From the NCBI RefSeq assembly GCF_006516955.1, contig NZ_VHLG01000002.1:248001-312000 (forward strand): 64,000 bases of DNA, in the 5' to 3' direction. Each line of letters opens with the position of its first letter. Position 1 is the first letter of the stretch. The position numbers and the translations under genes were made by a program. Below are positions 9,255-38,845 of the stretch, in pieces. The stretch is from Martelella alba. Lineage in GTDB: Bacteria > Pseudomonadota > Alphaproteobacteria > Rhizobiales > Rhizobiaceae. The notes below the pieces were generated by a model that was given only the letters and a program-made list of their open reading frames with translations, was not told where the DNA came from and did no database searches.

Positions 9255-9466
9255 CCAGACTGCTGACAAAGTCATTCAGACTGCATGTTTGAGGTGGAGA
9301 AGCTCCTCCCTCCGTCGTCGTCCCCGTGCTTGGTCCACGGGGATCCAGATTCATAAGGCATTGAATAGAAAGTTCTTTCGCCGCGCGGACGCGCGTCGGC
9401 TGGATGCCTGTGAACCAAGCGCAGGCATGACGTCGGAAAAGGAGGCGAGGTTTATCAGCAGCCTGG
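9255..9466 (-). repeat. Interspersed palindromic repeat, copy A (MITE-like)
   Basis: A 212-bp element, nearly the reverse complement of copy C at 38647-38845. Its ends are inverted repeats: CCAGACTGCTGACAAA at 9255-9270 and TTTATCAGCAGCCTGG at 9451-9466 (14 of 16 positions match). Inside is a hairpin CCCCGTG...CACGGGG and a second, degenerate one (GCCTG...CAGGC). Flanks CGACGGTGCCCGTC (9240-9253) and CGGCGTTGCCCGTC (9467-9480) agree at 12 of 14 positions and look like a target duplication. No protein is encoded. Strand is given relative to copy C. Confidence 0.8.
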
Positions 9467-9912
9467 CGGCGTTGCCCGTCGCGTTTTTCGATATTCTTCT
9501 GCCGCAATTTTTCCGCCACCTGGCATTGCAGCGCAGACAGATCATCGCGAAGCCTGGCTTTCCGGACACAAGATCTGGTCCGCTCCGCTCTGCCCCTCAA
9601 GCGCCGAGACGCGCTGCATCGAGTGAGATACCCGCGCGTCCTGTCGGCAGTTTGCTGATCGCAACACCAGCACGGCAGAGAGATGGATATGCAAATGATG
9701 CATTGCAGCATTTTTTAATATGCTAGTCTGCATTTTCATGAAATAAATTTGCGATACATCAAGGTCACTGCGAATTTTACCTGTCATCTGACAAGAAACC
9801 TTCTCTGCCAACTCGAAACACCAGATTTGCGGTGCAATAGAGCTTGCTCCCTGACAATCAAGAAGGACGGCAGAAAGAGGGATCCGCGACCGCGCCACTA
9901 CGGGAGACACCA
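9467..9912. other. Intergenic region upstream of the symporter gene
   Basis: I see no convincing gene. Minus-strand frames around 9540-9710 contain a charged stretch (LRDDLSALQCQVAEKLRQKN) that could be a coding remnant, but the frame continues straight into repeat A and has no recognisable start or family. The AT-rich part at 9700-9770 (for example TTTTTTAATATG) is likely the symporter promoter region. Confidence 0.4.
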
Positions 9913-11682
9913 ATGCTTTACGATTACCTTGTCATTGGCGGCTACTTCGCCTTGATGATCGCTATCAGCCTGATGTTCAAGAAGATGGCCGAAGGTTCAT
10001 CAAGCGACTATTTCCGCGGCGGCGGCAAGATGCTGTGGTGGATGGTCGGCGCGACGGCCTTCATGACACAGTTCTCCGCCTGGACCTTCACCGGCGCCGC
10101 TGGCAAGGCCTTTTCCGATGGCTTCGCCGTACTTGGTGTCTTCATCGGCAACATGGTCGCCTATGTCGCCGCCTATTTCTTCTTCGCGGCCCGGTTTCGC
10201 CAGATGCGGGTCGATACGCCAACTGAAGGGGTGCGGCGGCGCTTCGGCAATGGCAACGAGCAGTTCTTCACCTGGGTCATCATCCCCTTGAGCGTCATCA
10301 ATGCCGGTGTCTGGCTCAACGGGCTCGGTGTCTTTGCCTCGGCGGTGTTCGACAGCAACATTGTCACCACGATCTGGATCACGGGCCTTGCCGTTCTCGC
10401 GATTTCGCTGCTAAGCGGCGCCTGGGGCGTGGTTGCCTCGGATTTTATCCAGACACTGGTGGTCGCGGTAATTTCGGTAGCCTGCGCCGGTGTGGCCCTG
10501 TTTGCCGTTGGCGGCCCGGTGGAAATCGTCGAGAAATTCCCCGGCGGCTTTGTCATGGGGCCGGATATGAATTATCCGCTGCTGCTTGTCGGCACATTCC
10601 TGTTCTTCATCGTCAAGCAGCTGCAGAGCATCAACAATATGCAGGAGAGCTATCGCTTCCTGAATGCCAAGGACACGCCAAATGCCCGCAATGCGGCGCT
10701 GATGGCGCTTGTGCTGATGATGTTCGGCGCGGTCATCTGGTTTATCCCACCCTGGGCAACGGCAATTCTCTATCCCGATGCAGCAAATGCCTATCCCGAT
10801 CTCGGTGCCAAGGCCGCAGATGCCGTCTATCTGGTCTTTGCCCGCAACGCCATGCCGCTTGGAACGGTTGGCCTGCTGATGGCTGGCCTCTTCGCCGCCA
10901 CCATGTCATCGATGGATTCAGCCCTGAACCGCAATTCGGGCATTTTCGTCCGGTCATTCTATGCCCCGATCATCCGCAAAAATGCCGCCAGCGACCGCGA
11001 GCAGCTTCTCGCCGGCCAGGTCGTCTGCGTCGTCAACGGTCTTCTGGTCATCGGCATGGCGCAATTCTTCAACTCGATGAAAACGCTGAGCCTCTTCGAT
11101 CTGATGATGCAGGTCGCGACGCTTCTGCAGTCGCCGATCCTGGTGCCGCTCTTTGCCGGTATCTTCATCCGCAAGACGCCGAAATGGGCGCCCTGGGCAA
11201 CGGTCATCTTCGGCCTCTTTGTCTCATGGATGGTGGCCAATGTGGCCACACCTGATGTCGTCGCCGGCTGGTTTGGTGTCGATCAGCTAACGGCCCGCGA
11301 AACCGCCGATCTGCGTGTCATCGATACGATTGCCGCCCATCTGATCTTCACCCTCGGCTTCTTCTGCCTCACCACCCTGTTTTATGTCGAGGCACGCGAT
11401 CCCTATCGCTCAACCACCGATGCCTTCTTCAATGATGTGACGACCGCATGCGTGGCCGGCGCGGATCAAAGCGAGATCGACCGTGCCCAGCGGCGCAAGC
11501 TCGGCCTGCTCGTCATGGTTATGGGGGCGGGACTGGTGCTGATGACGGCAATTCCCAATCCGCTCTGGGGCAGACTTTTGTTCCTTGGCTGCGCCGCCGC
11601 CATCCTGATCATAGGCTACGGCCTTCGCAGAAGCGCCGGCACAGAGCACAGCGCAGCAAAACTCGCCACAAGCGAGGCCTGA
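9913..11682 (+). CDS. Sodium:solute symporter (SSS family)
   Basis: A 589-residue inner-membrane transporter of the SSS/SLC5 fold that uses the sodium gradient to import an organic solute. Support: about 13-14 hydrophobic helices; the N-terminal pattern MLYDYLVIGGYFALMIAISL then DYFRGGGKMLWWMVGATAFM; and the central LFAATMSSMDSALNRNSG, which matches the family signature around helix 8. The start at 9913 is preceded by GGGAGA; an earlier in-frame codon at 9844 lacks the membrane-type N-terminus. Substrate cannot be read from the sequence. It stands alone, with a terminator at 11717. Confidence 0.88.
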   Translation: MLYDYLVIGGYFALMIAISLMFKKMAEGSSSDYFRGGGKMLWWMVGATAFMTQFSAWTFTGAAGKAFSDGFAVLGVFIGNMVAYVAAYFFFAARFRQMRVDTPTEGVRRRFGNGNEQFFTWVIIPLSVINAGVWLNGLGVFASAVFDSNIVTTIWITGLAVLAISLLSGAWGVVASDFIQTLVVAVISVACAGVALFAVGGPVEIVEKFPGGFVMGPDMNYPLLLVGTFLFFIVKQLQSINNMQESYRFLNAKDTPNARNAALMALVLMMFGAVIWFIPPWATAILYPDAANAYPDLGAKAADAVYLVFARNAMPLGTVGLLMAGLFAATMSSMDSALNRNSGIFVRSFYAPIIRKNAASDREQLLAGQVVCVVNGLLVIGMAQFFNSMKTLSLFDLMMQVATLLQSPILVPLFAGIFIRKTPKWAPWATVIFGLFVSWMVANVATPDVVAGWFGVDQLTARETADLRVIDTIAAHLIFTLGFFCLTTLFYVEARDPYRSTTDAFFNDVTTACVAGADQSEIDRAQRRKLGLLVMVMGAGLVLMTAIPNPLWGRLLFLGCAAAILIIGYGLRRSAGTEHSAAKLATSEA

Positions 11683-11716
11683 TCCCTGAGCCCTTTTACC
11701 GGGATCGTCTCGTCGC

Positions 11717-11752
11717 ACGCCGCGCCCCCTTCCTTCCGGGGCGCGGCGTTTC
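11717..11752 (+). terminator. Terminator of the symporter gene
   Basis: ACGCCGCGCCCC pairs with GGGGCGCGGCGT across an 8-base loop. The following T-run is short (TTT). Confidence 0.75.
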
Positions 11753-11798
11753 CTGTCAGCGTCTCATCGCGCACCCGCATTGTGCCGGATGGCCAACT

Positions 11799-11830
11799 GA
11801 AAAGCCCGGTCGCATCAGCGGCCGGGCTTC
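11799..11830 (-). terminator. Terminator of the DUF4167 gene
   Basis: On the minus strand GAAGCCCGGCCGC / GCGACCGGGCTT forms a stem followed by TTTT, 20 bases downstream of the stop at 11852. Confidence 0.8.
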
Positions 11831-11851
11831 AATTCACTACCTGCAGACAAT

Positions 11852-12604
11852 TTATTCCGAAGAGGCTTCCGCCATTTCAGGCTTGTCAGCCTCTCCGCTC
11901 TCGGCATCCTTGCGGGTGCGGCGGCGGCGGGCCGGTTTCTTTTCAGCTTCGCCTTCGGCGCTCGCGGCTGCCTCAGCCGCCGGTGCAGCCTCAGCCTCTG
12001 CGGCGCCTTCGGCTGCCTCTCCTTCGCTTTCGGCGCCACGCTTGGTGCGGCGCGGGCGCGCACCGGTCGGCGTGCGGCGACGCGAATTGCGTCGGCCAGC
12101 AACCGGCTGACCATCGGCTTCTTCAGCCATCACCTCGGCAGGCGTGCCTTCGATGACCGGCTGCGGACCATCCGCATCAACCGCCTTTTCGGCTGCCGCC
12201 TGCTTGGACTGCTCGCTGCGGTCAGACTGGCGGCTCTGGTTTGGCTCCGGCTGAGCGACGATGGCTGGCGCATCATCATCATTGATGTCGCTGTCATTGC
12301 CATCATTGCGCTCGTCACGCTGATAGCGTTCCTGCAACTGCGCCTGGGCCGATGCAATGATCCGGTTATAATGCTCGGCATGCTGGAGGTAATTTTCCGC
12401 CATGACACGATCGCCCGAGCCCTGCGCATCCCGCGCCAGCGCCAGATATTTCTCGGCGATATGCTGCGCAGTGCCACGGATTTTCACGTCAGGACCCGAG
12501 CTGTCATAGGTCCTGGTCAGCGGGTTGGCGCCCTTGCGGTTGAAATTGTTATTGTTGTTATTGCCGCGCCCCCGGCTGCGCTTGTTCTGCTGTCCTGGCC
12601 TCAT
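11852..12604 (-). CDS. DUF4167 domain protein, low-complexity tail
   Basis: A 250-residue protein with a conserved N-terminal DUF4167 domain (MRPGQQNKRSRGRGNNNNNN, then KIRGTAQHIAEKYLALARDA and NYLQHAEHYNRIIA). The rest is low complexity: an acidic Asp/Asn part, then Ala/Glu-rich runs with basic clusters (ARPRRTKRG, KKPARRRRTRKD). Such RG/basic regions suggest nucleic-acid contact, but the function is unknown. The start at 12604 gives the conserved N-terminus; an upstream in-frame codon at 12715 does not. The neighbourhood with prmC and prfA is typical of Rhizobiales. Confidence 0.88.
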   Translation of the reverse strand: MRPGQQNKRSRGRGNNNNNNFNRKGANPLTRTYDSSGPDVKIRGTAQHIAEKYLALARDAQGSGDRVMAENYLQHAEHYNRIIASAQAQLQERYQRDERNDGNDSDINDDDAPAIVAQPEPNQSRQSDRSEQSKQAAAEKAVDADGPQPVIEGTPAEVMAEEADGQPVAGRRNSRRRTPTGARPRRTKRGAESEGEAAEGAAEAEAAPAAEAAASAEGEAEKKPARRRRTRKDAESGEADKPEMAEASSE

Positions 12605-12922
12605 GGAATAAACACCTGATTTTTGTTGTGGCCGAGCTAGACCGCACGGCAGCGCACAAAACGCTTCTCCGGCGGCATAGATCCGCTGGCTGGGCCAACT
12701 GAGCCCGTCTGCCAATCATAGAATCCAAATCACTGAATCACGCCAAAGGCGGCAAGGCCTGAACACAATAATCAAGCACAACACCTGAGACTGTCTGGGT
12801 CGAACGAATCGTTACCGCTTATCAGTCGCCTTTTTACGTGGCTGCAACCTAGCCCGCTTGCTCGAAAAATCCAAGCCCTTTCTCTGAAAGTTTTCAAAAA
12901 CATTGCGGGCGTGTCATTCCGA
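12605..12922. other. Intergenic region, DUF4167 leader
   Basis: 318 bases between prmC and the DUF4167 gene, with no credible coding frame and no strong hairpin. Probably holds the DUF4167 promoter and the 3' end of the prfA-prmC transcript. Confidence 0.5.
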
Positions 12923-13783
12923 TCAACGCGCCGGTTTAAAGATCACGACACGATCATTGCCGCCGAGATCCCGTATCGCTCGTTTGAGCGCAAAGCCTGC
13001 CGTTTCGAAAATCGCGACGACCGGCGCTTTCTGGTCATAGCCGATCTCCAGCGCCACGATACCACCCGGAACAAGGAATTTCCCCGCACCTGCAGCAATC
13101 GCCCGATAGGCGTCAAGTCCGTCATCACCGCCATCAAGGGCAGCACGCGGATCATGATCGCGCACCTCCGGCTGGAGCCGTTCTATCTCGTCCGTCCTGA
13201 TATAAGGTGGATTTGACACAATCATGTCGAACGGCCCGTCAAGCGGTGCATACCACGACCCGCATCGGGTCTCGAACCGTTCAGTCACTTTATGTACTAG
13301 TGCATTCCTTTGCGCCATTTCAAGGGCAGATTGCGAAATATCGCTCACGACAGCGTGTGCCTGCAGACATTGTGTCAAAAGCGTTATCGCAATGGCCCCG
13401 GTCCCTGTTCCCAGATCGGCAAAACGGACAGCACCACGCATGGCGACGATTTGCCGCATCTCGGTAAGTGCTTCCTCGACCAGAATTTCGGTATCCGGCC
13501 GTGGCTCAAGCGTTTCCGGACCAAGCGCAAAGTCAAGACCGTAAAACTCGCGGGCACCGAGAATGCGGTAGACCGGCTCACCGGCCGCCCGGCGGATCAC
13601 CGCGCCGCGCGCGCGCGCAAGTTCGTCGTCATCCAGAAGACGGGCGCCCTCAAGGGTCAGCCCGCCAAGCGAAAGAGAAAACAGGCCGCCGATCAGGTGA
13701 CGCGCCTCTTCGCGCGGTTCGGCGATACCGGCCGCGGCAAGGGCAGCACAGGCTTCATCGAACATCGCCCTCAGCGTTACCAT
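12923..13783 (-). CDS. prmC: Release factor glutamine methyltransferase
   Basis: SAM-dependent enzyme that N5-methylates the glutamine of the GGQ motif in release factors RF1 and RF2. The 286-residue protein has the SAM-binding stretch FADLGTGTGAIAITLL and the catalytic NPPY motif (IVSNPPYIRTDEI). The start at 13783 (MVTLRAMFDEAC) lies 4 bases beyond the prfA stop and is preferred to a longer start at 13840 that would run into prfA. Co-transcription with its substrate gene prfA fits the role. Confidence 0.96.
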   Translation of the reverse strand: MVTLRAMFDEACAALAAAGIAEPREEARHLIGGLFSLSLGGLTLEGARLLDDDELARARGAVIRRAAGEPVYRILGAREFYGLDFALGPETLEPRPDTEILVEEALTEMRQIVAMRGAVRFADLGTGTGAIAITLLTQCLQAHAVVSDISQSALEMAQRNALVHKVTERFETRCGSWYAPLDGPFDMIVSNPPYIRTDEIERLQPEVRDHDPRAALDGGDDGLDAYRAIAAGAGKFLVPGGIVALEIGYDQKAPVVAIFETAGFALKRAIRDLGGNDRVVIFKPAR

Positions 13784-13787
13784 TGGT

Positions 13788-14870
13788 TCAATTCCCCTGG
13801 GCACCAAGCTGGGCAAGCTGGCCGGCCTGATAGTCGGCAATCAGCGCATCGACCACCTCGTCGAGATCCCCCTGAATGATAGCATCGAGCTTGTAGAGCG
13901 TCAGATTGATACGGTGATCGGTCACACGGCCCTGCGGGAAATTATAGGTACGGATGCGCTCGGAACGGTCGCCCGATCCGACCTGGCTCTTGCGATCGGC
14001 CGAACGTTCGCTGTCAGCACGCTGGCGCTCGATGTCAAAAAGCCGGGCACGCAATACCTGCATCGCCTTGGCACGGTTTTGATGCTGGGATTTCTCCGAA
14101 CTGGTGACGATGATACCGGTCGGCAAATGGGTGATCCGCACCGCCGAATCCGTCGTGTTGACGTGCTGACCGCCGGCACCGGATGACCGCATCGTGTCGA
14201 TACGGATATCCTCGGCGCGGATTTCGACATCGATATCTTCCGCCTCCGGCAGCACCGCCACGGTCGCCGCAGACGTGTGGATACGGCCACTCGCCTCCGT
14301 CTCCGGCACACGCTGCACCCGGTGGACGCCGGATTCAAACTTCAGCCGGGAGAAAACCCCGCGCCCGCTGACCGAGGCGATGATTTCCTTGAACCCGCCG
14401 GCATCGCCGTCACTGGCCGAAAGGATCTCGACCTTCCAGCCCTTGCCAGCCGCATAGCGCTCATACATGCGGAACAGATCGCCGGCAAACAGAGCAGCTT
14501 CCGAGCCGCCCGTACCGGCGCGGATTTCCAGAACCGCGCTTTTCTCATCCGCCGCGTCCCTGGGCAGCAGCAGCAGCTGGATCTCGCCTTCGAGCGCCTC
14601 GATCCGCGCCTCAACCTCCGGCAGTTCCATTTCGGCAAGCTCGCGCATCTCGCGCTCGGTCGCCCTGTCGGAAAGCAGCGTCTCAAGATCGCGCACTTCG
14701 CTGGCAGCAGCGCTGTAATCACGGATCTTCTTCACCACCGGTTCAAGCTCGGCATATTCAGACGCCAGGCGGACATAGGTTTCCGCATCCGGCCCCGCCG
14801 ACATGCGGGCCTCGACCTCACTGAAGCGGCGCTCCAGTTCATTCATCTTTTCGACAGGTAGCCTCGCCAC
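13788..14870 (-). CDS. prfA: Peptide chain release factor 1
   Basis: RF1 recognises UAA and UAG and releases the finished peptide. In this 360-residue protein the codon-recognition tripeptide is PET at 189-191 and the catalytic GGQ is at 233-235 ([18 protein letters not shown]). Length is normal. The N-terminal coiled domain is complete. It sits between ptsP and prmC on the minus strand, an order seen in many rhizobia. Confidence 0.97.
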
Positions 14871-14964
14871 GCCGTTTTTATCTCCGTTTCCGTTGAATGA
14901 CGCGTCATTCAGCCTTTATGCCTGCCGCCCGCGCTAGCGGCAGATCATGGCAGAAGTAGCGGCG

Positions 14965-17232
14965 CTAAAGCGGAATATTGTTCTCGCTGGCAAAGCGTTG
15001 CAGCACTTCGCGCAACGGCATGTCATCGCCTGAATGATTGTCCAGCGCGGCATTCAAAAGCTCTGACAGTGCCACAACATCAAGCCCGAGCAACATCGCC
15101 TTGACCGGGCCAATCGCCGTCGGCGCCATGGAAATGGCGCGAAAACCGATGCCGAACAGTGCCATGGCCGACAGCGGCTTGCTGGCAAGCTCACCGCACA
15201 GCGTGACCGGCACCCCTGCCCGTTCGCCCGCGCGCACGATATCGCGCAGCACACGAAGGAAAGGCTTGCTGACCGGGTCGTAGCGATCGGAAACACGCGC
15301 ATTGCCGCGATCGACCGCCATGATGAACTGATAGAGATCGTTGGAACCGACCGAGACAAAATCCACCTCGGCCATCAGCTCGTCCATCTCATAAAGCAGT
15401 GCGGGGACCTCGATCATCGCACCAAGCTCGATCTTCTTCGGTACGCCATGGCCAAAGCGCTTCAGGTGCTGGATCTCCTTGGCCATCAGCGCCCGCGTCT
15501 CGCGCAGTTCCTGCACCTCGGACACCATCGGCACCATGACGCGCAGCACATCGCCGCTTGCCGCCTTCATCAGCGCGCGCATCTGCATGCGCAAGAGATA
15601 GGGCCGGTCAAGCGCCAGGCGGATGGCGCGCCAGCCCATGGCCGGGTTTTCCTCTTCCTGCGAGCGGAAATAGGACACCACCTTGTCAGAACCGATATCG
15701 AGCGTGCGGAAGGTGACGGGCCGGTTACCGGCAAAATCGAGCACCTGACGGTAGAAATTCTCCTGCTCAGCCGCCTTCGGCATGCGCGAGGCAATCATGA
15801 ACTGCAGCTCGGTGCGGAACAGGCCGATACCTTCAGCACCGCTGTCGTCAAACTGCGGCAGATCGACCAGAAGCCCGGCATTCATCATCAACTTGAAGCG
15901 AACGCCGTCACGCGAGACCGGCTCAACCAGCTTCAGCGCCCGGAACTGTTCCTGACGGCGCGCGCGCAGGCGGATCTTTTCATCATAGGCGGTGCTGACA
16001 GCTTCGATCGGGCGCAAATGCACCTCGCCATCATCGCCATCGACAATGATCTCATCGCCGTTCTCGGCCTGGGCCACTACGCCGACAGCCTGACCGATGA
16101 CCGGAATACCCATGGCGCGGGCCACAATCACCACATGGCTGGTCGCAGCGCCATCTTCCAGTACCAGACCTTTGAGATGATCGCGCGGGTAATCCAGAAG
16201 TTCGGCCGCCCCCATGGCCCGCGCGACAATCACCGCATCCAGCGGGAAACCATCGCGGCCATCACCGGAAAAGCCGGTCAGCTGGCGCAAGAGCCGGTTG
16301 GCAAGATCATCAAGATCATGCATGCGATCCCGCATGAAGGGATCGGTGAGCCGGATCATCCGCGCCTTGGTATCGCTTTGAACCTTTTCCACCGCACCTT
16401 CGGCCGTCAGCCCCAGCCGGATTGCCTCTTCAAGCCGGCGAACCCAGCCGCGGTCATGGGCAAACATGCGATAGGTTTCCAGCACCTCGCGATGCTCACC
16501 CTCGCTTGAGACATCGCGCCGATTCAGCATGTCGTCGATCGACAGACGGAGCGAATCCAGCGCCTCATGCAGGCGCTTGATCTCGGCGTCGCTGTCTTCA
16601 TTGACGAGATTATTGACGATGATGCGCGGCTCATGCAGCACCACATGCCCGATCGCGATCCCTTCGCCATAGGCATCGCCGGAAAGCGAGACCGAGCGGG
16701 TGAGATCCAGCTCCATGCCGGGACGGGTGATCTTCTTCAGATCGCCCGAGACGATCATCTCGGCGAGCAGCATCGCCGCCGTCTGCAACCCCTCGACCTC
16801 ATCTTCGGAATAGCCGCGCTCGTCGGTGTTCTGCACCACGAGAACACCGAGCGTGCGCCCGGCTCTGAGGATCGGTACGCCGAGGAAGGAATGATAGATC
16901 TCTTCGCCCGTTTCCGGCAGATAACGGAAGGCGGGATGCGACTGGGCATCGGAGAGGTTGAGCGGCTGGGCAGACGCGGCGATCGTGCCGACAAGGCCCT
17001 GCCCCATGCGCAGCTGCGCCAGATGGACGGCGTCTTTCTTCAGGCCTTGAGTCGCATAAAGCTCAAGCACGCTGTCGGCGCGCAGCACATAGACCGAGCA
17101 CACGGCCGCCACCATGTTGCTCGCGATCTGCCCGACGATACGGTCAAGGCGATCCTGCGGCTCCAGCGGCTCCGCCATCAGTTCTCGCAGCCGCTTGAGC
17201 AGGATGCGCGGGCCCGATGCTTGATCTCTCAT
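14965..17232 (-). CDS. ptsP: Phosphoenolpyruvate-protein phosphotransferase PtsP (EI-Ntr)
   Basis: Enzyme I of the nitrogen phosphotransferase system. It autophosphorylates from PEP and passes phosphate to NPr (PtsO), giving signalling rather than sugar uptake. The 755-residue protein starts with a GAF domain (about residues 20-160; IYHSFLGVPILRAGRTLGV). The Enzyme I body follows: the phosphohistidine lies in DGAATSHVVIVARAMGIP, the PEP-binding barrel includes LFRTELQFM, and the catalytic cysteine is in VTLCGELASKP. The GAF domain distinguishes it from the sugar-PTS EI. It lies between lysC and prfA. Confidence 0.95.
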   Translation of the reverse strand: MRDQASGPRILLKRLRELMAEPLEPQDRLDRIVGQIASNMVAAVCSVYVLRADSVLELYATQGLKKDAVHLAQLRMGQGLVGTIAASAQPLNLSDAQSHPAFRYLPETGEEIYHSFLGVPILRAGRTLGVLVVQNTDERGYSEDEVEGLQTAAMLLAEMIVSGDLKKITRPGMELDLTRSVSLSGDAYGEGIAIGHVVLHEPRIIVNNLVNEDSDAEIKRLHEALDSLRLSIDDMLNRRDVSSEGEHREVLETYRMFAHDRGWVRRLEEAIRLGLTAEGAVEKVQSDTKARMIRLTDPFMRDRMHDLDDLANRLLRQLTGFSGDGRDGFPLDAVIVARAMGAAELLDYPRDHLKGLVLEDGAATSHVVIVARAMGIPVIGQAVGVVAQAENGDEIIVDGDDGEVHLRPIEAVSTAYDEKIRLRARRQEQFRALKLVEPVSRDGVRFKLMMNAGLLVDLPQFDDSGAEGIGLFRTELQFMIASRMPKAAEQENFYRQVLDFAGNRPVTFRTLDIGSDKVVSYFRSQEEENPAMGWRAIRLALDRPYLLRMQMRALMKAASGDVLRVMVPMVSEVQELRETRALMAKEIQHLKRFGHGVPKKIELGAMIEVPALLYEMDELMAEVDFVSVGSNDLYQFIMAVDRGNARVSDRYDPVSKPFLRVLRDIVRAGERAGVPVTLCGELASKPLSAMALFGIGFRAISMAPTAIGPVKAMLLGLDVVALSELLNAALDNHSGDDMPLREVLQRFASENNIPL

Positions 17233-17315
17233 GGCTTTTCATCCCCGGACTTTGGGACGGAGGACGCCCCGGAAAGGCTGCCGAAACCCGGTGATTTCCG
17301 ACAGCCCGTTGACGG

Positions 17316-23459: not shown

Positions 23460-23660
23460 AAGCATGGGTGACCGGATCGGGCAGGTCTCCTGGCTTCCGC
23501 GTCATCGCCTTTTCTCCACCTTCCCGGGCCAAAGACCCAGTGGCTTTAAACGGAAATGGCTCTGCGGTTACAGTTGCGGGGGCAGCCACGGCTGAGACAA
23601 AAGCCTTCCCGTGTTCCCTTTTCATCCGCCAGCAAGGGCGGAACCTGATCCGGAAGCGAC
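23460..23660 (-). promoter_or_regulatory. Cobalamin riboswitch upstream of btuB
   Basis: On the minus strand the leader contains GCAACTGTAACCGCAGAG and, 3' of it, the B12 box GCCAGGAGACCTGCC (plus-strand positions 23480-23494). The flanking helices expected for adenosylcobalamin aptamers are visible, for example GGTTCCGCCCTTGCTGGCGG near the 5' end. About 140 bases remain between the aptamer and the btuB ATG for the expression switch. Binding of B12 would turn the btuBFCD operon down. Confidence 0.95.
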
Positions 23661-23769
23661 CTTAATTTAAACAAAATCGTTAAGTCAACGCCAGCCCGGA
23701 GAGGCTGCGCACTTTGTCCCAAGCTATTGTTAATCCGTCACACTTTTACGGTTTTGAAGGGACCGGAAT

Positions 23770-26237: not shown

Positions 26238-26262
26238 GCAATCCGGCTTTCAATTGTCTGTG

Positions 26263-29009: not shown

Positions 29010-29010
29010 C

Positions 29011-30108
29011 TCACACATCCCTCTTTTCGAAATCGATGCGCGGATCGATCCAGGTGTAGATCAGGTCGGAAATCAGGCCGACAATGAGGCCGATGAGGGA
29101 AAAGATGTAAAGCGTGCCGAAGACCACGGGATAGTCGCGGTTGACGACCGAGAGATAACCGAGCCGCCCGAGACCATCGAGCGAGAAAATGTTCTCGATC
29201 AGCAGTGAGCCGGTGAAGAAGGCGGAGATGAAGGCGCCGGGAAATCCTGCAATGACAATCAGCATGGCATTGCGGAACACATGGCCGTAAAGCACCTGCC
29301 GCTCGGACAGGCCCTTGGCCCGGGCGGTCACCACATATTGCTTCTTGATCTCGTCAATAAAGGAATTCTTGGTCAAAAGCGTCGTTGTCGCAAAGGCGGA
29401 GACGGCAAGAGCAATGACCGGCAGGGTGATGTGCCAGAGATAATCGAGGATCTTCTGCCACCAGGACAGCGAGGCGAAATCATCCGAGACGAGCCCGCGC
29501 AAGGGGAACCAGTCAAAGAAGGAACCACCGGCAAACAGCACGATCAGCAGGATACCGAACAGGAAGGATGGCACGGCATAGCCAACCACCACGATGGCCG
29601 AGGTCCAGACATCGAAACGCGTGCCATCACGCACTGCCTTGGCAATGCCGAGCGGAATGGAAATGCCGTAGGACAGGATCAGGATCCAGACGCCAAGCGA
29701 AATCGATACGGGGAGTTTCTCGATGATCAGATCAATCACAGAGGTGTTGCGAAAGAAGCTGTCGCCGAAGTTGAAGGTTGCATAATCCCGCATCATCAGC
29801 AGGAACCGTGTCAGCGGCGGCTTGTCGAAACCGAACTGCTTTTCCAGCTTCTTGATCAGTTCCGGGTCCAGCCCCTGGGCGCCGCGATATTGCGACGACC
29901 CGCCACTGTCGAAATTATCCATCGACATGCCGGCATCCGAGCCACCGGAAATGCGCGCCTCGGCACCGCCGGCCTGACCGTTGAGCTGGGCGATAACCTG
30001 CTCGACCGGTCCGCCGGGCGCAAACTGCACGACGATGAAGGATATCGCCATAATGCCGATCAGTGTCGGGATCATCAGCAAAATTCGGCGCAGGATATAG
30101 CTTCCCAT
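29011..30108 (-). CDS. yejB: Peptide ABC transporter permease YejB
   Basis: A 365-residue permease of the DppB class. [20 protein letters not shown] is the typical N-terminus, and [14 protein letters not shown] is the conserved periplasmic segment. A Gly/Ser-rich insertion ([20 protein letters not shown]) precedes the core, as in other YejB proteins. The EAA loop is [19 protein letters not shown]. Second gene of yejABEF. Confidence 0.93.
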
Positions 30109-30160
30109 CAGCCCCCGGCCCTTGCAAACTCAATATGCAGCACGTCTTTCCTTACTCGCC

Positions 30161-31993: not shown

Positions 31994-32147
31994 AATTCAG
32001 CCTTTTCCCGCTATTACTTTTTTTTCCTATATCCGAAAATAAGCAAAATTCGGTCAGAATACACAAGAGCATTTATAGTATTTGCGAGAGCCCGCACCTG
32101 ATCACTGCACCACAACGCCGTTGCTGCAACGCATTCTGGAGGATGAG

Positions 32148-33158
32148 ATGGGATTGAAAAAACTGATTCTTGCGCTGTCTGCCCTCGTCGCATGCCTGAC
32201 GCCGGCACGCGCCGAAGATCCGCCCTCGGCCAAGGTTCTGTTTGCCTCGGTCTCAACCCCATCCGCCGGTCCCGCCCGCGCGATTGGCTTTTATGCCGAT
32301 GGCTGCCTTTCCGGGGCGCAAGCCCTGCCGATCGACGGTGAGACCTGGCAGGCAATGCGGCTGTCGCGCAACCGCCGTTTCGGCACCCCGCAACTCATTG
32401 ATACGATCGAGAAACTGTCCCGCGACGCTGCGCAATATGACGGCTGGCCCGGCCTTCTGGTCGGCGACATGTCCGAACCGCGCGGAGGGCCGATGATTTC
32501 AGGCCACGCCTCCCATCAGATCGGCCTTGATGTCGATATCTGGCTGACGCCGATGCCGGATCACCGGCTTTCACTGCGCGAACGCGAGGACCTGTCGGCA
32601 CAATCCGTGCTGAAGAATGACGGCACGCTGTTCATCGACCCGAAAAAATTCACCCCCGCCGGCGAAAAACTCGTCATGCGTGCTGCAAGCTACCCGGAAG
32701 TGCAGCGGATTTTCGTTCATCCCGGCATCAAGAAAGACCTTTGCGACAACTGGAAGGGAGACCGCTCCAATCTTGCCAAAGTGCGCCCCTATTGGGGCCA
32801 TGACGATCATATCCACATCCGCCTGTTCTGCCCGAAAGGACAGAAGGACTGCAAAGCCCAGAACGCTGTCGACATGAAGGATGACGGTTGCGGCGAGAAT
32901 CTCGCCTGGTGGTTGTCCGATGAGCCGTGGAAACCGGCAGAGCCCGTAAAACCCGTCAAGCCCGCAAAACCGTCGAAAAAGCCGAGCCGGCCGTCTTACA
33001 AGATCCTGTCCGATCTGCCCAAGGCCTGTGCCACCGTACTGAGCGCTGCCGCCCCCTCACCTTTGCCGGCCGCAGCCCTGACGCCGCCGATCCCGCTGCC
33101 GCCGCTTGCCCCCTGGCCGGAAGTCGGCCCCGTGCCAACACCCAGGCCCGCCGGTTGA
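32148..33158 (+). CDS. mepA: Penicillin-insensitive murein endopeptidase
   Basis: LAS-type metallopeptidase that cuts D-Ala-meso-DAP cross-links in peptidoglycan. From the ATG at 32148 (GGAGG just upstream) the 336-residue precursor has a signal peptide ending TPARA. Zinc ligands are in SHQIGLDVDIWL and WGHDDHIHIRL. The C-terminal 90 residues are Pro/Lys/Ala-rich (EPVKPVKPAKPSKKPSRPS) and beyond the catalytic core, probably a flexible wall-contact tail. The in-frame start at 32082 would mask the signal. Confidence 0.93.
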   Translation: MGLKKLILALSALVACLTPARAEDPPSAKVLFASVSTPSAGPARAIGFYADGCLSGAQALPIDGETWQAMRLSRNRRFGTPQLIDTIEKLSRDAAQYDGWPGLLVGDMSEPRGGPMISGHASHQIGLDVDIWLTPMPDHRLSLREREDLSAQSVLKNDGTLFIDPKKFTPAGEKLVMRAASYPEVQRIFVHPGIKKDLCDNWKGDRSNLAKVRPYWGHDDHIHIRLFCPKGQKDCKAQNAVDMKDDGCGENLAWWLSDEPWKPAEPVKPVKPAKPSKKPSRPSYKILSDLPKACATVLSAAAPSPLPAAALTPPIPLPPLAPWPEVGPVPTPRPAG

Positions 33159-33491
33159 AACAATCGGGCACAGCTTGTCTGTTAGCTCTTCCAAACCGGT
33201 TTGGCTTGATGTAGGTCATTGAAGCGCACTAAATCGATTGTATTACCTCAAACAGCACGGAAGGGTAGCGTTTCGGCCTTTCATGGCGCCGCAATCACCC
33301 TTGACGCCTGTTTTCACGGACGAAACGGATGACAAGGCGCAACCGCATGAGAAAGGCCCCGGCGACTTAAAAGTTTCAACCAGGGCGACCATATTGTCGT
33401 CGAACTGGTTGAAGCAGACTTCCAACACGGGCTAAATGCCGTCAGACACCGTTACAGAGCCTTCGACGAAAAGGCAGATATGGGAAACACC
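33159..33491. other. mepA-glk intergenic region
   Basis: 333 bases without a credible gene. It contains the palindrome at 33191-33204. The remainder is unremarkable and should include the glk promoter. Confidence 0.5.
33191..33204. promoter_or_regulatory. Perfect palindrome, LacI-type operator candidate
   Basis: CCAAACCGGTTTGG is a 14-bp perfect palindrome with the AAACCGGTTT core seen in many LacI-family operators. It lies 32 bases after mepA and about 290 bases before glk. The regulator is unknown. Confidence 0.4.
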
Positions 33492-34517
33492 ATGGCCAAA
33501 TCCAGTGATATTGATCAGCCCCTTTCTTTTCCGATTCTGATCGGTGACATCGGTGGCACGAATGCCCGTTTTTCGCTGCTTGTCGACCCTTATGCCGAGC
33601 CGCGCGATTTTCCGATCGTCCACACCAAGGAATTCGCCACTATTGGCGAAGCCATCCAGGCCGGGGTGATGGACAAATCCTCACTGCAGCCGCGCTCGGC
33701 GATTCTTGCCGTTGCCGGTCCAATTCGCGGCGACGAGATCCCGCTCACCAATTGCGACTGGGTGGTCAAGCCGAAGGAAATGATCAGCGAACTTGGTCTT
33801 GAGGATGTGCTGATCATCAATGATTTCGAGGCTCAGGCGCTGGCAATTGCCAATATGCCGGACAAATACCGCGTTGCGATCGCCCCGCGCCCGGACAAGA
33901 TGATGGCATCGCGCGTGGTGCTGGGTCCGGGAACAGGCCTCGGCGTCGCCGGACTTGTCTATGCCCAGCACAAATGGATCCCCGTTCCCGGCGAAGGCGG
34001 CCATGTCGATCTCGGCCCGCGCAGCAAGCGCGATCTCGAAATCTTCCCGCATATCAAGACCATTGAGGGCCGCGTCGCTGCCGAGCAGATCCTCTGCGGC
34101 CGTGGCATGGTCAATCTCTACAACGCCATCTGCACGGCCGACGGGATTACGCCAAGCCTTATCGAACCCTCTGACGTCAGCCATGCCGGACTTGATGGAT
34201 CCAACGAGCAGGCAGTGGAAACCCTGTCGCTTTTCGCCACCTATCTCGGCCGGATCGCCGGCGACATGGCAATGATCTTCATGGCCCGCGGCGGTGTCTA
34301 TCTGGCAGGCGGCATTTCGGAAAAGATCCTTCCTGCACTGCAGAAGCCCGAATTCCGCGCCGCCTTCGAAGACAAGGCACCGCATGATGCGCTGATGCAG
34401 TCGATCCCGACCTATGTCGTCACCCATCCGCTGGCAGCCCTTGCAGGCCTTGCCACCTATGCCCGCACGCCCGGCCGTTTCGGGCTGGCGCTTGAAAACC
34501 GCCGCTGGCGCGGCTGA
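33492..34517 (+). CDS. glk: Glucokinase
   Basis: Phosphorylates glucose with ATP. From the ATG at 33492 it has 341 residues; an ATG at 33480 would add MGNT. ATP-binding [13 protein letters not shown] near the N-terminus, [13 protein letters not shown] and the sugar-binding [16 protein letters not shown] are all present, with the phosphate-binding [14 protein letters not shown] near the C-terminus. It belongs to the bacterial Glk family rather than the ROK family. Repeat copy B lies right behind it, inside its apparent terminator. Confidence 0.95.
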
Positions 34518-34518
34518 A

Positions 34519-34551
34519 GCCTCCACGCCTTCGCCCGATCCGGCGGAGGTG
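34519..34551 (+). terminator. glk terminator hairpin, separated from its T-tract by repeat B
   Basis: GCCTCCACGCC pairs with GGCGGAGG(T) across 12 bases, two bases after the glk stop, but no T-run follows. Instead, repeat copy B starts at 34552. A second copy of the right arm, GGCGGAGGCG at 34683-34692, is followed by T5. The original terminator was probably one unit. Confidence 0.6.
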
Positions 34552-34682
34552 CCAGAGTGTTGACAAAGTCATTCAGATTGCCTGCTCGGGGTCACAGAAC
34601 CAGCCCTCTCCGTCGTCATCCCCGCGCTTGTCGCGGGGATCCAACTTCTTAAGTCATTGAACAAAAAACCTTTCGCCGTGCT
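34552..34682 (-). repeat. Interspersed palindromic repeat, copy B (short form)
   Basis: About 131 bp matching the first part of copy A in the same orientation: CCAGAGTGTTGACAAA at the left end, then the hairpin ATCCCCGCG-CTTGT-CGCGGGGAT. The other half with its terminal repeat is absent. It is bracketed by GGCGGAGGTG (34542-34551) and GGCGGAGGCG (34683-34692), 9 of 10 identical. Confidence 0.75.
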
Positions 34683-34697
34683 GGCGGAGGCGTTTTT

Positions 34698-35111
34698 CCG
34701 GTCCGGCAACGCCTTGCCCACCCTTTCACGAAAATTCGCCCGCCCTTCCTGCCCGACTACCAGGCAAGCATGGGCGTGATGACAGACCTTCTGAAGCTGG
34801 TCATCGGCTATGAGACCGGCGATCCTGACCGGATTGCCGCCGTGATCCTCGACCTTTCCCGCCGCGATGACCTGCCGGACCATCTGGTCCTTGGCTCCGA
34901 CGCGCTTGCCTTTCTGAAAGTGGCCGACGAAAAGCGCAGACAAGACGGCGAGACCTGGGAGGCCATCGGCCGATCGATCGATTTTGACGATGCCGATTTC
35001 GCTGTTCTGGATGGTTTCGGCGACATTCAAAGATGCCCCCTGCCCGGTACCGGCACTGGCACCGGCAGATCAAAACCCGCCGGTGCCGCTCTGTTCAACG
35101 CCAGCGCCTGA
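34698..35111 (+). pseudogene. Remnant of a short-chain dehydrogenase gene (C-terminal part only)
   Basis: An open frame of about 138 codons reads RQRLAHPFTKIRPPFLPDYQ and then GYETGDPDRIAAVILDLSRR followed by LPDHLVLGSDAL, the usual C-terminal part of classical SDR oxidoreductases. The Rossmann motif and the YxxxK active site, normally about 170 residues upstream, are missing; the sequence before 34698 is the glk terminator T-tract. An ATG at 34770 would give 113 residues, but that is only a fragment of the fold. I regard it as a decayed gene. Confidence 0.6.
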
Positions 35112-35167
35112 CGCTATAGAAATGACGGGCAAACGTCACACTTGACAGACGAGACAGGACACGGTCT

Positions 35168-36970
35168 TTGGAAAAACATCATAAAAAACAGATGGATACG
35201 GGAAATACCGTCGGGCTGTACCCGGTTATGAAGCGCGTCTTTTCGGAAAATGCGCGCGAGCATTTCTGGGGCTACAGCTTCTCAACCCTCTGCCTGATGG
35301 CCGTTGCCGGCTGCACCGCCTTTTCCGCCTGGATCATGCAGACGGTGGTCGACGAGATCTTTGCCAATCAACGCGGCGACCTGGTCGCGCTGGTGTGTTT
35401 TTCGGTCTTTCTCGCCTTCACCATTCGCGGCTTTGCCACCTATGGCCAGTCGGTCGTGCTCAACATGATCGGCAACAACATCATCGCGCGCTACCAGCGC
35501 AAGGTGTTCGACCACCTGATGAACCTGTCGCTGACCTATTACAGCGAGGAACGCTCGGCCAAGCTGATTGCCCAGCTGAACCAGAATATCGGCGGTATCC
35601 GCGACATGATGAACCTCGTCATCACCTCGGCGGCACGCGATGCGCTGTCGGTGATCGCGCTGGTAGGCGTGATGATCGCCAAGGATCCGATGCTGACGCT
35701 GATCATCTTCGTCGCCGCCCCGCCGGTGGTGATTTCACTGCGCAGCATTTCGCGCAAGATGCGCAAGGTCTCGCGTGAAACGGTCGAGATCGGCTCGCGT
35801 ACCTTTGCTGCCATGCAGGAAAGCGTGCAGGGCATTGCCGTGGTCAAGGCCTTCACCATGGAAGACCTGCTGCGTGACAAGGTCGGCAAGCTGATCGACC
35901 GCTCGGAAAACCGCAATAACCGCGCCGCCAAGCTTTCCCAGCGCACCGTGCCTTTGACGGAGACCTTTGCCGGTGGCGCCATTGCCGCCGTCATCGCCTA
36001 TGCCGGCTATCGCACCATCTATCACGCCGTGCCGCCCGGTTCGTTTTTTGCCTTCATCACCGCCGTTCTGATGGCCTATGACCCGGCCAAACGCCTTGCC
36101 AAATTACAGGTGCAGCTGGAGCGCGCCGCCATCAATGCCAGCATGCTCTACGAGGTGCTCGACACGATCCCGCACCAGCCCGATGACGAAGATGCCGGGC
36201 CGCTCGTGGTCGGCAAGGCTGAAATCCGGCTGGATGATGTCGTCTTCGGTTATGGCCGCACGGAAATCCTGAAGTCAGTGAACTTCGTTGCCGAAGGCGG
36301 CAAGACCACAGCGCTGGTCGGCCCGTCAGGGGCTGGCAAGAGCACGATCATCTCGCTCATTCCCCGCTTCTACGATATCCGCTCCGGCCGGATCACCATT
36401 GACGGGACGGATCTCGATCGGGTCACCAAGCATTCCCTGCGCAGCCAGATCGCCTATGTCAGCCAGCGACCTTATCTCTTCGAAGGCTCGATTGCCGACA
36501 ATATCCGCTATGGCCGTCCCGATGCCAGCGACGAAGATGTCCGTGAAGCCGCCCGACTTGCCTATGCCCATGATTTCATTCTCGCCCAGCCGCAGGGCTA
36601 TGACACACCGGTCGGCGAAAGCGGCAGCACGCTTTCCGGCGGTCAGCAGCAGCGCATCTCGATCGCCCGCGCCATATTGCGCAATGCCCCGATCCTGCTT
36701 CTCGACGAGGCGACCTCGGCGCTTGACGCGGAATCAGAAGCCTTTGTCCAGAAGGCGTTGGATGAAGCGATGCGCGGGCGCACCGTCATCGTCGTTGCCC
36801 ACCGGCTTTCCACCGTCATCAATGCTGACAAGATCATCGTCATGCATGAGGGCCAGGTGGTCGAGGAAGGAACGCATCGCCAGCTGATTGCGAAGCCCGG
36901 AGGCCTCTATGCCCATCTGAGCGAGCTGCAGTTCAATGCGGGTTCAAAAACGGCCCCGAAAAATGACTGA
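35168..36970 (+). CDS. ABC exporter (fused membrane and ATPase domains, MsbA-like)
   Basis: A 600-residue half-transporter that would act as a homodimer. Residues about 30-320 form the six-helix exporter domain. The ATPase has Walker A GPSGAGKSTIISLIP, Q-loop SQRPYLF, signature [15 protein letters not shown], Walker B ILLLDEATSALD and the H-loop VAHRLST. Lipid A or another lipid is a common cargo for such proteins, but the substrate is not proven. The start is TTG at 35168 with AGGA upstream; an ATG at 35192 is an alternative. Confidence 0.88.
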   Translation: MEKHHKKQMDTGNTVGLYPVMKRVFSENAREHFWGYSFSTLCLMAVAGCTAFSAWIMQTVVDEIFANQRGDLVALVCFSVFLAFTIRGFATYGQSVVLNMIGNNIIARYQRKVFDHLMNLSLTYYSEERSAKLIAQLNQNIGGIRDMMNLVITSAARDALSVIALVGVMIAKDPMLTLIIFVAAPPVVISLRSISRKMRKVSRETVEIGSRTFAAMQESVQGIAVVKAFTMEDLLRDKVGKLIDRSENRNNRAAKLSQRTVPLTETFAGGAIAAVIAYAGYRTIYHAVPPGSFFAFITAVLMAYDPAKRLAKLQVQLERAAINASMLYEVLDTIPHQPDDEDAGPLVVGKAEIRLDDVVFGYGRTEILKSVNFVAEGGKTTALVGPSGAGKSTIISLIPRFYDIRSGRITIDGTDLDRVTKHSLRSQIAYVSQRPYLFEGSIADNIRYGRPDASDEDVREAARLAYAHDFILAQPQGYDTPVGESGSTLSGGQQQRISIARAILRNAPILLLDEATSALDAESEAFVQKALDEAMRGRTVIVVAHRLSTVINADKIIVMHEGQVVEEGTHRQLIAKPGGLYAHLSELQFNAGSKTAPKND

Positions 36971-37103
36971 GGGACGGCCATGGCCACTGCCGGCCTTTCG
37001 CCATTGACGCAAAGCGGGTTATAGAGGCAAACAGAATGCAGTCCGGGCAGCAAGGCCCGAAACAGGGCCGGGCCGCCGCCCGGCCAACAGACCAGGAAAA
37101 GAC

Positions 37104-37928
37104 ATGACCGAAAAGGCAATGAAACTCGTCGTCGTGGGTGCCAGCGGCCGCATGGGCAAGGCGCTCATCCGCATCATCGCCGAAACCGAGGGCGCAGTCC
37201 TGCATGCCGCCGTCGAGCGCAAGGGCTCACCGATGATCGGCAGGGATGCCGGTGAAATGTCCGGGATAGAGCCGCTGGGTGTTGCCGTGAGCGACGCACC
37301 GCTTGAAGCCTTTCTGGAGGCTGATGGCGTGCTTGACTTCACCGCACCGGCCGCAACCGTTGAATTTGCCAGTCTCGCCGCCCAGGCCCGCATTGTCCAT
37401 GTGATCGGCACGACCGGGCTTTCCGAGACTGATGAGACACAGATCAAGGCGGCCGCCCGCCATGCCCGTATCATCAAATCCGGAAATATGAGTCTCGGGG
37501 TCAATCTGCTCGGCGTTCTCGTGCGTCAGGCAGCCGCTGCCTTGTCTGCCAAGGGCTGGGATATCGAAGTTCTGGAAATGCATCATCGCCACAAGGTCGA
37601 TGCACCGTCCGGAACGGCGCTCCTTCTCGGCGAAGAGGCAGCGAAGGGCCGGAAGGTGGATCTGCGCGATAAGGCAGTGCGAAGCCGCGACGGCCATACC
37701 GGTGCGCGGCCGGAAGGGGCGATCGGTTTTGCCTCGCTGCGCGGCGGATCGGTGGTCGGCGAGCATTCGGTGCTGCTGGCTGGCGAGGGTGAGGTTGTGA
37801 CGCTGTCCCACAGCGCGCTCGACCGTAGCATTTTCGCCCGGGGCGGTGTTCAGGCCGCTCTTTGGGGCAAGGACCAGAAACCCGGTCTCTATTCCATGCT
37901 CGACGTGCTCGGGCTTTCCGATAGTTAA
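37104..37928 (+). CDS. dapB: 4-hydroxy-tetrahydrodipicolinate reductase
   Basis: NAD(P)H-dependent reductase of the lysine/diaminopimelate pathway. The 274-residue protein has the nucleotide-binding [13 protein letters not shown] and the catalytic signature [20 protein letters not shown]. Length is normal. gpmA follows after 34 bases on the same strand. An in-frame ATG five codons in ([11 protein letters not shown]) is an alternative start. Confidence 0.96.
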
Positions 37929-37962
37929 ATGTAACACTGCTAAGTCTTGAAGGAACATTGTC

Positions 37963-38598
37963 ATGAGCGGAACTCTGGTTCTGGTGCGCCACGGCCAAAG
38001 CGAATGGAATCTGAAAAACCTCTTCACCGGCTGGAAGGACCCGGATCTGACCGAGCTCGGCGTTCAGGAGGCAACGGCTGGCGGCAAGGCGCTTGCCGAA
38101 ACCGGCATCAAATTCGACGTCGCCTACACCTCGGCGCTCACCCGCGCCCAGCACACCTGCAAGCTGGTTCTTGAACAGATCGGCCAGAGCGACCTTGAGA
38201 CCATCAAGGATCAGGCCCTCAACGAACGCGATTATGGCGATCTTGCCGGCCTCAACAAGGATGATGCGCGCGAGAAATGGGGTGAGGAACAGGTCCATAT
38301 CTGGCGCCGCTCCTATGACGTGCCCCCGCCCGGCGGCGAAAGCCTGAAGGATACCGGCGCCCGCGTCTGGCCCTATTACATGACCGAGATCCTGCCGCGC
38401 GTTCTCCGCGGCGAAAAGGTTCTGGTTGCCGCTCATGGCAATTCGCTGCGCGCCCTCGTCATGGTGCTGGACCGTCTGAGCCAGGAAGAGATCCTGAAGC
38501 TCAACCTCGCCACCGGCGTGCCGATGGTCTACACGCTGAACGCCGATTCCACCGTCGCCAGCAAGAAGGTTCTCGGCGACATGTCCGGCGCCCACTGA
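37963..38598 (+). CDS. gpmA: 2,3-bisphosphoglycerate-dependent phosphoglycerate mutase
   Basis: Interconverts 3- and 2-phosphoglycerate. The 211-residue protein opens with [20 protein letters not shown], where the RHG histidine is phosphorylated. [16 protein letters not shown] and [12 protein letters not shown] complete the active site. It probably shares a transcript with dapB. Its terminator at 38621-38646 has been split by repeat copy C. Confidence 0.96.
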
Positions 38599-38620
38599 GG
38601 TCGCAGACAGCTGGAGTTTC

Positions 38621-38646
38621 AAAAGGGGCGGTCTTCGGGCCGCCCT
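38621..38646 (+). terminator. gpmA terminator hairpin, split from its T-tract by repeat C
   Basis: GGGCGGTC-TTCG-GGCCGCCC (38626-38645) is an 8-bp stem with a UUCG tetraloop, preceded by AAAA. It is followed not by T's but by repeat C. A second copy of the hairpin sequence, GCGGTCTTCGGGCCGCCCT at 38846-38864, carries the T5. Confidence 0.8.
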
Positions 38647-38845
38647 CTGGCTGCTGACAAACCTCGCTCCTTTTTCTGACGTCATGCCTGTGCTTGTCAC
38701 AGGCATCCAGCCGACGCGCGTCTGCGCGGCGAAAGGACTTGTCTATTCAATGTCTTATGAATCTGGATCCCCGTGACAAGCACGGGGATGACGACGGAGG
38801 GAGGTGCTGCTCCACCTCAAATATGCAATATGAATGGCTTTGTCA
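38647..38845 (+). repeat. Interspersed palindromic repeat, copy C (MITE-like)
   Basis: About 199 bp. Ends GCTGACAAA (38653-38661) and TTTGTCAGC (38839-38847) are perfect inverted repeats. Two internal hairpins are ATGCCTGTG-CTTGT-CACAGGCAT and ATCCCCGTG-ACAAG-CACGGGGAT. It is close to the reverse complement of copy A along its whole length. It is flanked by the 19-bp direct duplication GCGGTCTTCGGGCCGCCCT. No protein is encoded; open frames across it are artefacts. Confidence 0.85.

What the first reader, a model, noticed from the sequence alone, without database searches (positions are those of the whole stretch)
9255..38845. A short MITE-like repeat family that may target rho-independent terminators
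Three copies (9255-9466, 34552-34682, 38647-38845) share terminal repeats close to CCAGACTGCTGACAAA and stable internal hairpins. The hairpin arms covary: CCCCGTG/CACGGGG in A and C, CCCCGCG/CGCGGGG in B, so base pairing is maintained although sequence changes. Each copy is in an apparent terminator. Known rhizobial intergenic elements (RIME, Sm repeats) are similar in kind, but I cannot tell whether this one is described or which transposase moves it.
Basis: partly seen in the sequence, partly recalled or inferred. Interest (0 to 1): 0.7.

Follow-up and report, generated by a model that had tools for sequence, protein, structure and literature searches.

The report
Mobile element that duplicates transcription terminators
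A short, roughly 210-base mobile element present in about a hundred copies in this bacterium inserts beside the hairpins that end genes and, in most copies examined, leaves a copy of the whole hairpin on both of its sides, so the gene-ending signal probably survives the insertion.

Summary
The repeat is real. The genome holds about 105 copies (226 matches to the 16-bp end TCAGACTGCTGACAAA against 15 for the reversed control) of a ~210 bp MITE. IS1182-family insertion sequences with the same ends (mostly about 1.5 kb; transposase frame of 455 codons or more open in 60 of 80 loci) occur across Alphaproteobacteria; none was found in this draft genome. MITE and IS both sit at the feet of terminator-like hairpins, and the target duplication is the whole hairpin. 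Its length follows the hairpin: both end at the same base in 36 of 40 IS and 27 of 42 MITE copies. Flank duplication was scored in 42 of 54 IS and 49 of 79 MITE copies, against 10 of 2862 and 3 of 3121 cross-locus pairs. Empty sites in sister genomes show one hairpin. The interior is a pair of CGTC-REP palindromes, a repeat class published as lacking a dedicated transposase; the combination recurs in other genera and one other family. RIME-like loci lack these ends (0 of 11). Hairpin targeting by IS1182 members is known; whole-hairpin duplication was only drawn as a hypothetical pathway.

The parts
9255..9466 (-). Copy A: complete MITE (212 bp); ends 9255-9270 and 9451-9466
   Evidence: L011
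9240..9253 (.). Left copy of the decayed terminator hairpin at A
   Evidence: 12 of 14 identical to 9467-9480, below the duplication threshold used
9467..9488 (+). Right copy of the terminator hairpin at A with its T-run
9316..9347 (+). CGTC-REP palindrome in A
   Evidence: read from the sequence
9401..9432 (-). Second CGTC-REP palindrome in A, inverted
   Evidence: read from the sequence
34552..34682 (-). Copy B: half MITE, left end only (34552-34567)
   Evidence: no second terminal repeat found (L247)
34527..34551 (+). Left copy of the terminator hairpin at B
   Evidence: single empty-site hairpin in G005 (L163)
34683..34697 (+). Right remnant of the B hairpin (one arm) with T-run
34614..34643 (+). 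CGTC-REP palindrome in B (CCCCGCG variant)
38646..38847 (+). Copy C: MITE with eroded right end; left end 38646-38661, right end remnant 38839-38847
38626..38645 (+). Left copy of the 20-bp terminator hairpin at C
38848..38868 (+). Right copy of the C hairpin (5' edge lost) with T-run
38680..38709 (+). CGTC-REP 1 in C
38764..38793 (-). CGTC-REP 2 in C, inverted

Best explanation
The repeat is a non-autonomous (MITE) member of an IS1182-family group whose DDE transposase recognises 16-bp ends TCAGACTGCTGACAAA. Shown: MITE and IS share these ends, lie at the feet of terminator-like hairpins, and in most scored copies are flanked by copies of the entire hairpin, with duplication length following hairpin length; the T-tract stays once, on the outer side. 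Inferred: the transposase recognises the palindrome as an extruded cruciform or equivalent folded structure and joins the element's 3' ends to the two 5' feet of the stem-loops, so gap repair copies the whole hairpin. Inferred consequence: the outer hairpin plus T-run still ends transcription, so insertion is nearly neutral, the site can be reused, and the REP hairpins end up in the 3' untranslated region. The autonomous partner has been lost from this genome, lies in an assembly gap, or is too divergent to be found.
For: Copy number. Same ends on an IS1182 element; 55 of 80 fetched loci have both ends inside the locus; 3 of 3 transposases tested score 484-493 bits on the IS1182 model, cutoff 270. 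Flank duplication: 49 of 79 MITE copies vs 3 of 3121 cross pairs; 42 of 54 IS copies vs 10 of 2862. Hairpin at the edge: either side 68 of 79 MITE and 53 of 54 IS copies vs 331 of 3000 random positions; both sides 45 of 79 and 46 of 54 vs 7 of 3000. Duplication vs hairpin length: Spearman 0.90 (42 MITE copies) and 0.91 (40 IS copies); ends coincide exactly in 27 of 42 and 36 of 40. Empty sites: one hairpin plus T-run in 5 of the 12 other genus genomes at copy C, and one hairpin without MITE in G005 at copy B. Serial insertion at one terminator gives hairpin-MITE-hairpin-MITE-hairpin (L005/L013). Among 30 loci, a long open frame ends within 400 nt on both sides of 18 and on one side of 12.
Against: 30 of 79 two-ended MITE copies did not reach the duplication threshold; some show a visible but gapped or decayed match, others none. 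12 of 54 IS copies did not reach it either; by eye at least 7 of these have clear but different hairpins on the two sides, explained here by later recombination, which was not tested. No IS1182 element of this kind was found in this genome, so MITE-transposase pairing rests on shared ends and shared target habit. Beyond the ends, MITE and IS share no convincing sequence. Four other IS1182 elements with other ends showed no flanking hairpins by eye. Cruciform recognition is untested, and no transposition was observed.
Confidence: 0.85

Rival explanations
1. Ordinary staggered-cut transposition with a preference for GC-rich palindromic sequence; the stagger is set by the enzyme, not by DNA structure.
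For: Some DDE elements prefer palindromes and give fixed duplications (recalled). IS1272 of the same family targets hairpins without any duplication, so the use of structure can vary.
Against: Duplication length varies over 15-27 bp in MITE copies and 16-26 bp in IS copies and tracks hairpin length; mean difference 0.25 bp for IS copies vs 2.59 by permutation (minimum of 5000 permutations 1.5).
Confidence: 0.07
2. Hairpin replacement as in IS1272: the element removes the target stem-loop, and the flanking hairpins are coincidental or part of the element.
For: Same IS family; IS1272 and TnSha1 replace or partly delete stem-loops.
Against: Flanking hairpins differ from locus to locus but match each other within a locus (49 of 79 and 42 of 54, vs 3 of 3121 and 10 of 2862 cross pairs). 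The empty site has one copy.
Confidence: 0.03
3. The repeat is a RIME or CGTC-REP element spread by a REP-type (RAYT) or unknown route, and the IS1182-like ends are incidental.
For: The interior is a CGTC-REP pair, and RIME-like loci share it without these ends (0 of 11). 22 of 100 listed REPs in this genome were not placed in a MITE copy.
Against: 78 of 100 listed REPs lie in MITE copies, and at least 3 of the other 22 do too: copy B itself (C22:282614) and two read later (C2:100269 and C11:93575; L315, L316). The ends match IS1182 elements, and the hairpin duplication is shared with the IS.
Confidence: 0.05

Closest known systems
IS1182 family, notably IS1272 and TnSha1 of staphylococci (PMC5678879: abstract, passages and part 1 of 2 of the discussion read; PMC4923244: passages read)
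   Same: Same transposase family, 16-bp ends, targets are stem-loops that are often terminators.
   Different: IS1272/TnSha1 replace or partly delete the stem-loop and leave no duplication; here the whole stem-loop is duplicated. Wan et al. 2017 drew that outcome as hypothetical pathway b.
CGTC-REP palindromes (Di Nocera et al. 2013, PMC3733652: passages read)
   Same: The two inner palindromes fit: CGTC tag, 9-bp stem beginning AT, loop of about 5, CCA tail, inverted pairs.
   Different: Published as apparently lacking a dedicated transposase; here 78 of 100 listed copies in the genome lie inside IS1182-type ends.
RIME / rhizobial intergenic mosaic elements (Osteras et al. 1995, not held; recalled)
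   Same: Loci taken here as RIME-like share the REP pair and a similar spacer.
   Different: 0 of 11 such loci have the 16-bp end at 12 of 16 or better. No published RIME sequence was compared.
IS1182-family MITEs of Methanosarcina acetivorans related to ISMac2 (PMC3852290: passages read)
   Same: MITEs of the same IS family (160 and 169 bp, 14 and 7 copies in its table).
   Different: Its table gives two short values per MITE (26/4 and 25/0), which I take as repeat and duplication sizes; no whole-hairpin duplication or REP interior is described in the passages read.

Membership tests
MITE | Short, multicopy, terminal inverted repeats | tested here: met
   about 210 bp; 79 of 90 fetched loci have both ends; 226 end matches
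MITE | No coding capacity | not tested
   not examined systematically; the element is only about 210 bp and its interior is palindromes
MITE | Target site duplication | tested here: met
   49 of 79 vs 3 of 3121 cross-locus pairs
IS1182 family (mobilising element) | Full IS with the same ends encodes an IS1182 transposase | tested here: met
   found in other genomes, not in this one
IS1182 family (mobilising element) | Transposase acts on the MITE ends | not testable with these tools
   needs an assay
IS1272-type inverted-repeat replacement | Target stem-loop is lost and no duplication is made | tested here: not met
   hairpin present on both sides of most scored copies; single hairpin at empty sites
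CGTC-REP dimer (interior) | CGTC tag, 8-9 bp stem starting AT, 4-5 nt loop, CCA tail, inverted pair | tested here: met
   154 matches to such a pattern in the genome at up to 3 mismatches vs 0 control; arrangement in alignment A2
RIME | Sequence match to published RIME1 | not tested
   the original paper is not held
RIME | RIME-like loci carry the same ends | tested here: not met
   0 of 11 loci
Rfam RNA family | Match at gathering score over the MITE copies in the window | tested here: not met
   2 matches in the window, neither over a MITE

The most novel reading that the evidence does not exclude
A clade of IS1182-family transposases measures its target by structure: it inserts at the feet of an extruded terminator hairpin and duplicates exactly that hairpin, whatever its length. 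In several alphaproteobacterial lineages the CGTC-REP dimers, published as having no dedicated transposase, spread as the interior of MITEs moved by this system.
Probability: 0.5. Interest if true: 0.8.

Novelty: new variant of a known kind. Interest (0 to 1): 0.7.

Why it matters
Target duplications normally have a set length that reflects the transposase's geometry (recalled). Here the length follows the target's own secondary structure, which offers a direct test of cruciform-guided transposition and would realise an outcome that Wan et al. drew only as hypothetical. It suggests how an element can insert into terminators a hundred times with little harm, since the terminator is rebuilt. It also offers a candidate answer, in several lineages, to the published question of which transposase moves CGTC-REP palindromes.

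Tried and rejected
Autonomous partner in the window genome: none found; the only IS1182-model match is a weak fragment (E = 9.5e-4). The genome is a draft of 55 contigs, so a partner in an assembly gap is not excluded.

Other IS1182 elements in relatives (L031, L032, L033, L035; 4 examined): different ends, and no flanking hairpins seen by eye, so hairpin duplication is not claimed for the whole family.

MITE as an internal deletion of the IS: not supported; the 3 MITE copies compared match the 2 IS over about 13-18 bp at the ends (one copy, L026, over 23 bp; C over 27 bp at 81%), and the remaining matches are short.

RIME as the same thing: not supported (0 of 11). Two papers opened for RIME (PMC2873474, PMC3233446; passages) only cite the original or mention repeats.

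End matches in G003: 3 of 3 sampled had neither a REP nor a clear hairpin and look like chance. In G132, 2 of 10 sampled had no CGTC-REP within 60 nt.

First hairpin control was too lenient (798 of 1800 random positions passed); replaced by a stricter score. The two-sided control and the open-frame count were redone for this report, because one search had used wrong positions for some loci near contig ends. Rows dropped: 11 of 90 loci without two usable ends before the duplication counts; 4 of the 79 before the alignment (end score or length); 9 of 30 partial or short loci; 26 of 80 IS loci without both ends and 45-nt flanks.

Empty site for copy A: not informative in the 12 other genus genomes; G007 has a different MITE in that region (L177). 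Copy B: informative only in G005.

Literature: 10 searches. In the listings and the passages opened I saw no paper describing a MITE or IS that duplicates whole terminator hairpins; one search listed 15 of 592 papers, and most subscription papers are not held. Searches returned nothing. ISfinder was not available.
Full report
THE OBSERVATION. Copies A (9255-9466) and C (38646-38847) are ~210-bp elements with 16-bp inverted ends; B (34552-34682) is a half copy with one end. A BLAST search of the window's own genome with C scored 40 of 127 first-look candidates and returned 41 strong long matches, one weaker long match and many short secondary ones. The end sequence alone matches 115 forward and 111 reverse places at up to 3 mismatches, against 6 and 9 for the reversed control, which implies about 105 copies, partial ones included. 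Only the first 100 places are listed, so copies were collected without regard to their flanks: 90 loci were read, of which 79 have two usable ends.

THE TARGET. Most copies lie between two copies of a hairpin that differs from locus to locus. An ungapped flank-to-flank score of 10 or more was reached in 49 of 79 copies, against 3 of 3121 cross-locus pairs. A hairpin at the element edge (score 5 or more) was found on the right in 55, on the left in 58, on either side in 68 and on both sides in 45 of 79; random nearby positions gave 168 of 3000 for one side, 331 of 3000 for either side and 7 of 3000 for both. A hairpin followed by a T-rich tract on at least one side was found in 50 of 79, against 7 of 3000 random positions scored the same way. 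In the first 30 loci, an open frame of 170 codons or more ends within 400 nt on both sides of 18 and on one side of 12.

DUPLICATION LENGTH. In 42 MITE copies with both measures, duplication and hairpin ends coincide exactly in 27 and within one base in 38; Spearman 0.90. In 40 IS copies they coincide exactly in 36; Spearman 0.91; mean difference 0.25 bp against 2.59 by permutation. Duplication length is measured from flank-to-flank identity and hairpin length from the right flank alone, so the two measures are separate.

THE MOBILISER. A search of 61 genomes with the NCBI IS1182 model (4 of 61 over the cut-off) gave, in G021, an element in two pieces whose flanks carry perfect 16-bp ends; its C-terminal part is 100% identical to a Xaviernesmea oryzae contig. 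That copy is frame-broken. A scan of named genomes with that part found 491 encoding stretches among the rows seen and kept the best 80; 55 have both ends in the locus, mostly about 1.5 kb apart (1475-1962 bp). The transposase frame is open for 455 codons or more in 60 of 80 loci and is exactly 470 in 45; several of the shorter ones lie at contig ends. Three transposases tested score 484-493 bits on NF033551 (cutoff 270); two tested on Pfam match DDE transposase domains. Hosts among the 80 include Rhizobium, Mesorhizobium, Agrobacterium, Brucella, Novosphingobium, Sphingomonas, Rhodopseudomonas, Acidocella and Nitrospirillum. 42 of 54 IS copies with long enough flanks show the duplication, against 10 of 2862 cross pairs. 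By eye at least 7 of the 12 others have hairpins on both sides, but different ones, as recombination between copies would give; this was not tested. The window genome, a draft of 55 contigs, showed no IS1182 element of this kind. In 151 genomes of the family, 31 have the end at up to 1 mismatch; the window genome has the most (66), and in several others the matches lie close to contig ends, as collapsed multicopy elements would.

EMPTY SITES. At copy C, G005 carries the same insertion with a perfect 20-bp hairpin on both sides. Of the 11 remaining genus genomes, five (L141-L144, L146) have one such hairpin plus T-run and no MITE, and six have other intergenic sequence, in some a different hairpin, and no MITE. 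At copy B, G005 has one hairpin and no MITE, so B inserted after the two lineages split, or was lost without trace in G005; the other genus genomes could not be compared there. Copy A was uninformative. Within the 13 genus genomes the MITE is multicopy only in G000 and G005; G006 (1) and G007 (2) have short matches only.

THE INTERIOR. The two inner palindromes fit the published description of CGTC-REPs: CGTC, a 9-bp stem starting AT, a loop of about 5 and a CCA tail. The genome has 154 pattern matches at up to 3 mismatches against 0 control; of the 100 listed, 78 lie in identified MITE copies, and at least 3 of the other 22 do so too (copy B, L315, L316). In sister genomes G001, G006, G007 and G008, with different REP sequences, 17 of 42 ends of 21 full dimers have the IS1182-type end at 12 of 16 or better, against 12 of 2100 control windows; 7 of 21 have both ends at 11 or better. 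In G132, another genus of the family, 8 of 10 sampled ends (14 found) are followed within 60 nt by a CGTC-REP. Over 397 genomes of the order, a TGACAAA-gap-CGTC-REP pattern was found in 22, with no control match in the rows listed: 36 matches in G000, 14 in G456 of another family, 2-3 each in three genomes of genus g54, and 1-2 in the other 17, many of which look like chance. In G456, 2 of 6 fetched loci have matching hairpins on both sides (L305, L307). Against this, 11 RIME-like loci from Sinorhizobium, Rhizobium and Agrobacterium plasmids share the REP pair but none has the end at 12 of 16. The link is therefore shown in several lineages, not for all CGTC-REPs.

MECHANISM. Shown: shared ends, hairpin targeting and whole-hairpin duplication. 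Inferred: a DDE transposase joins the element's 3' ends to the 5' feet of an extruded cruciform. Wan et al. 2017 drew this outcome as pathway b beside the replacement pathway they propose for IS1272. Also inferred: because the T-tract stays outside the outer hairpin, termination is rebuilt. The serial insertion at one terminator (L005/L013) fits a reusable site.

KNOWN AND NEW. IS1182-family targeting of palindromes and terminators is published, and IS1182-family MITEs are listed in an archaeon. Whole-hairpin duplication with length following the hairpin, a terminator-homing MITE family of this IS group, and its link to CGTC-REPs were not seen in the listings and passages of the 10 literature searches made. 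That does not exclude ISfinder records or papers not held.

ORGANISM. Its family contains G021, whose IS-bearing contig matches Xaviernesmea oryzae, so Rhizobiaceae is inferred.

The open-frame count was replaced by a recount and a two-sided hairpin control was added.

Noticed in passing
window 23463-23663, minus strand: Cobalamin riboswitch (Rfam RF00174, 125.9 bits).
   Followed up: no
window 55614-55758, plus strand: Alphaproteobacterial sRNA ar7 (Rfam RF02342, 84.7 bits).
   Followed up: no
L177/L252 (G007), next to the gene flanking copy A: A different REP-dimer MITE with a related end sits between hairpin copies in the same intergenic region in which the window genome carries copy A, suggesting independent reuse of a terminator region.
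   Followed up: partly
L005 and L013 (G000:C54:203803-204240): Two MITEs inserted in series at one terminator, with three hairpin copies.
   Followed up: partly
L056, L061, L092, L094, L112, L118, L126: IS copies whose two flanks are, by eye, clear but different hairpins, as if copies had recombined.
   Followed up: no
L082 (Mesorhizobium sophorae): After the second hairpin copy a fragment resembling an element end follows, perhaps a trace of an earlier insertion.
   Followed up: no
L014 (G000:C51:158723-158940): An exceptional copy whose left flank looks like a CGTC-REP palindrome rather than a terminator.
   Followed up: no
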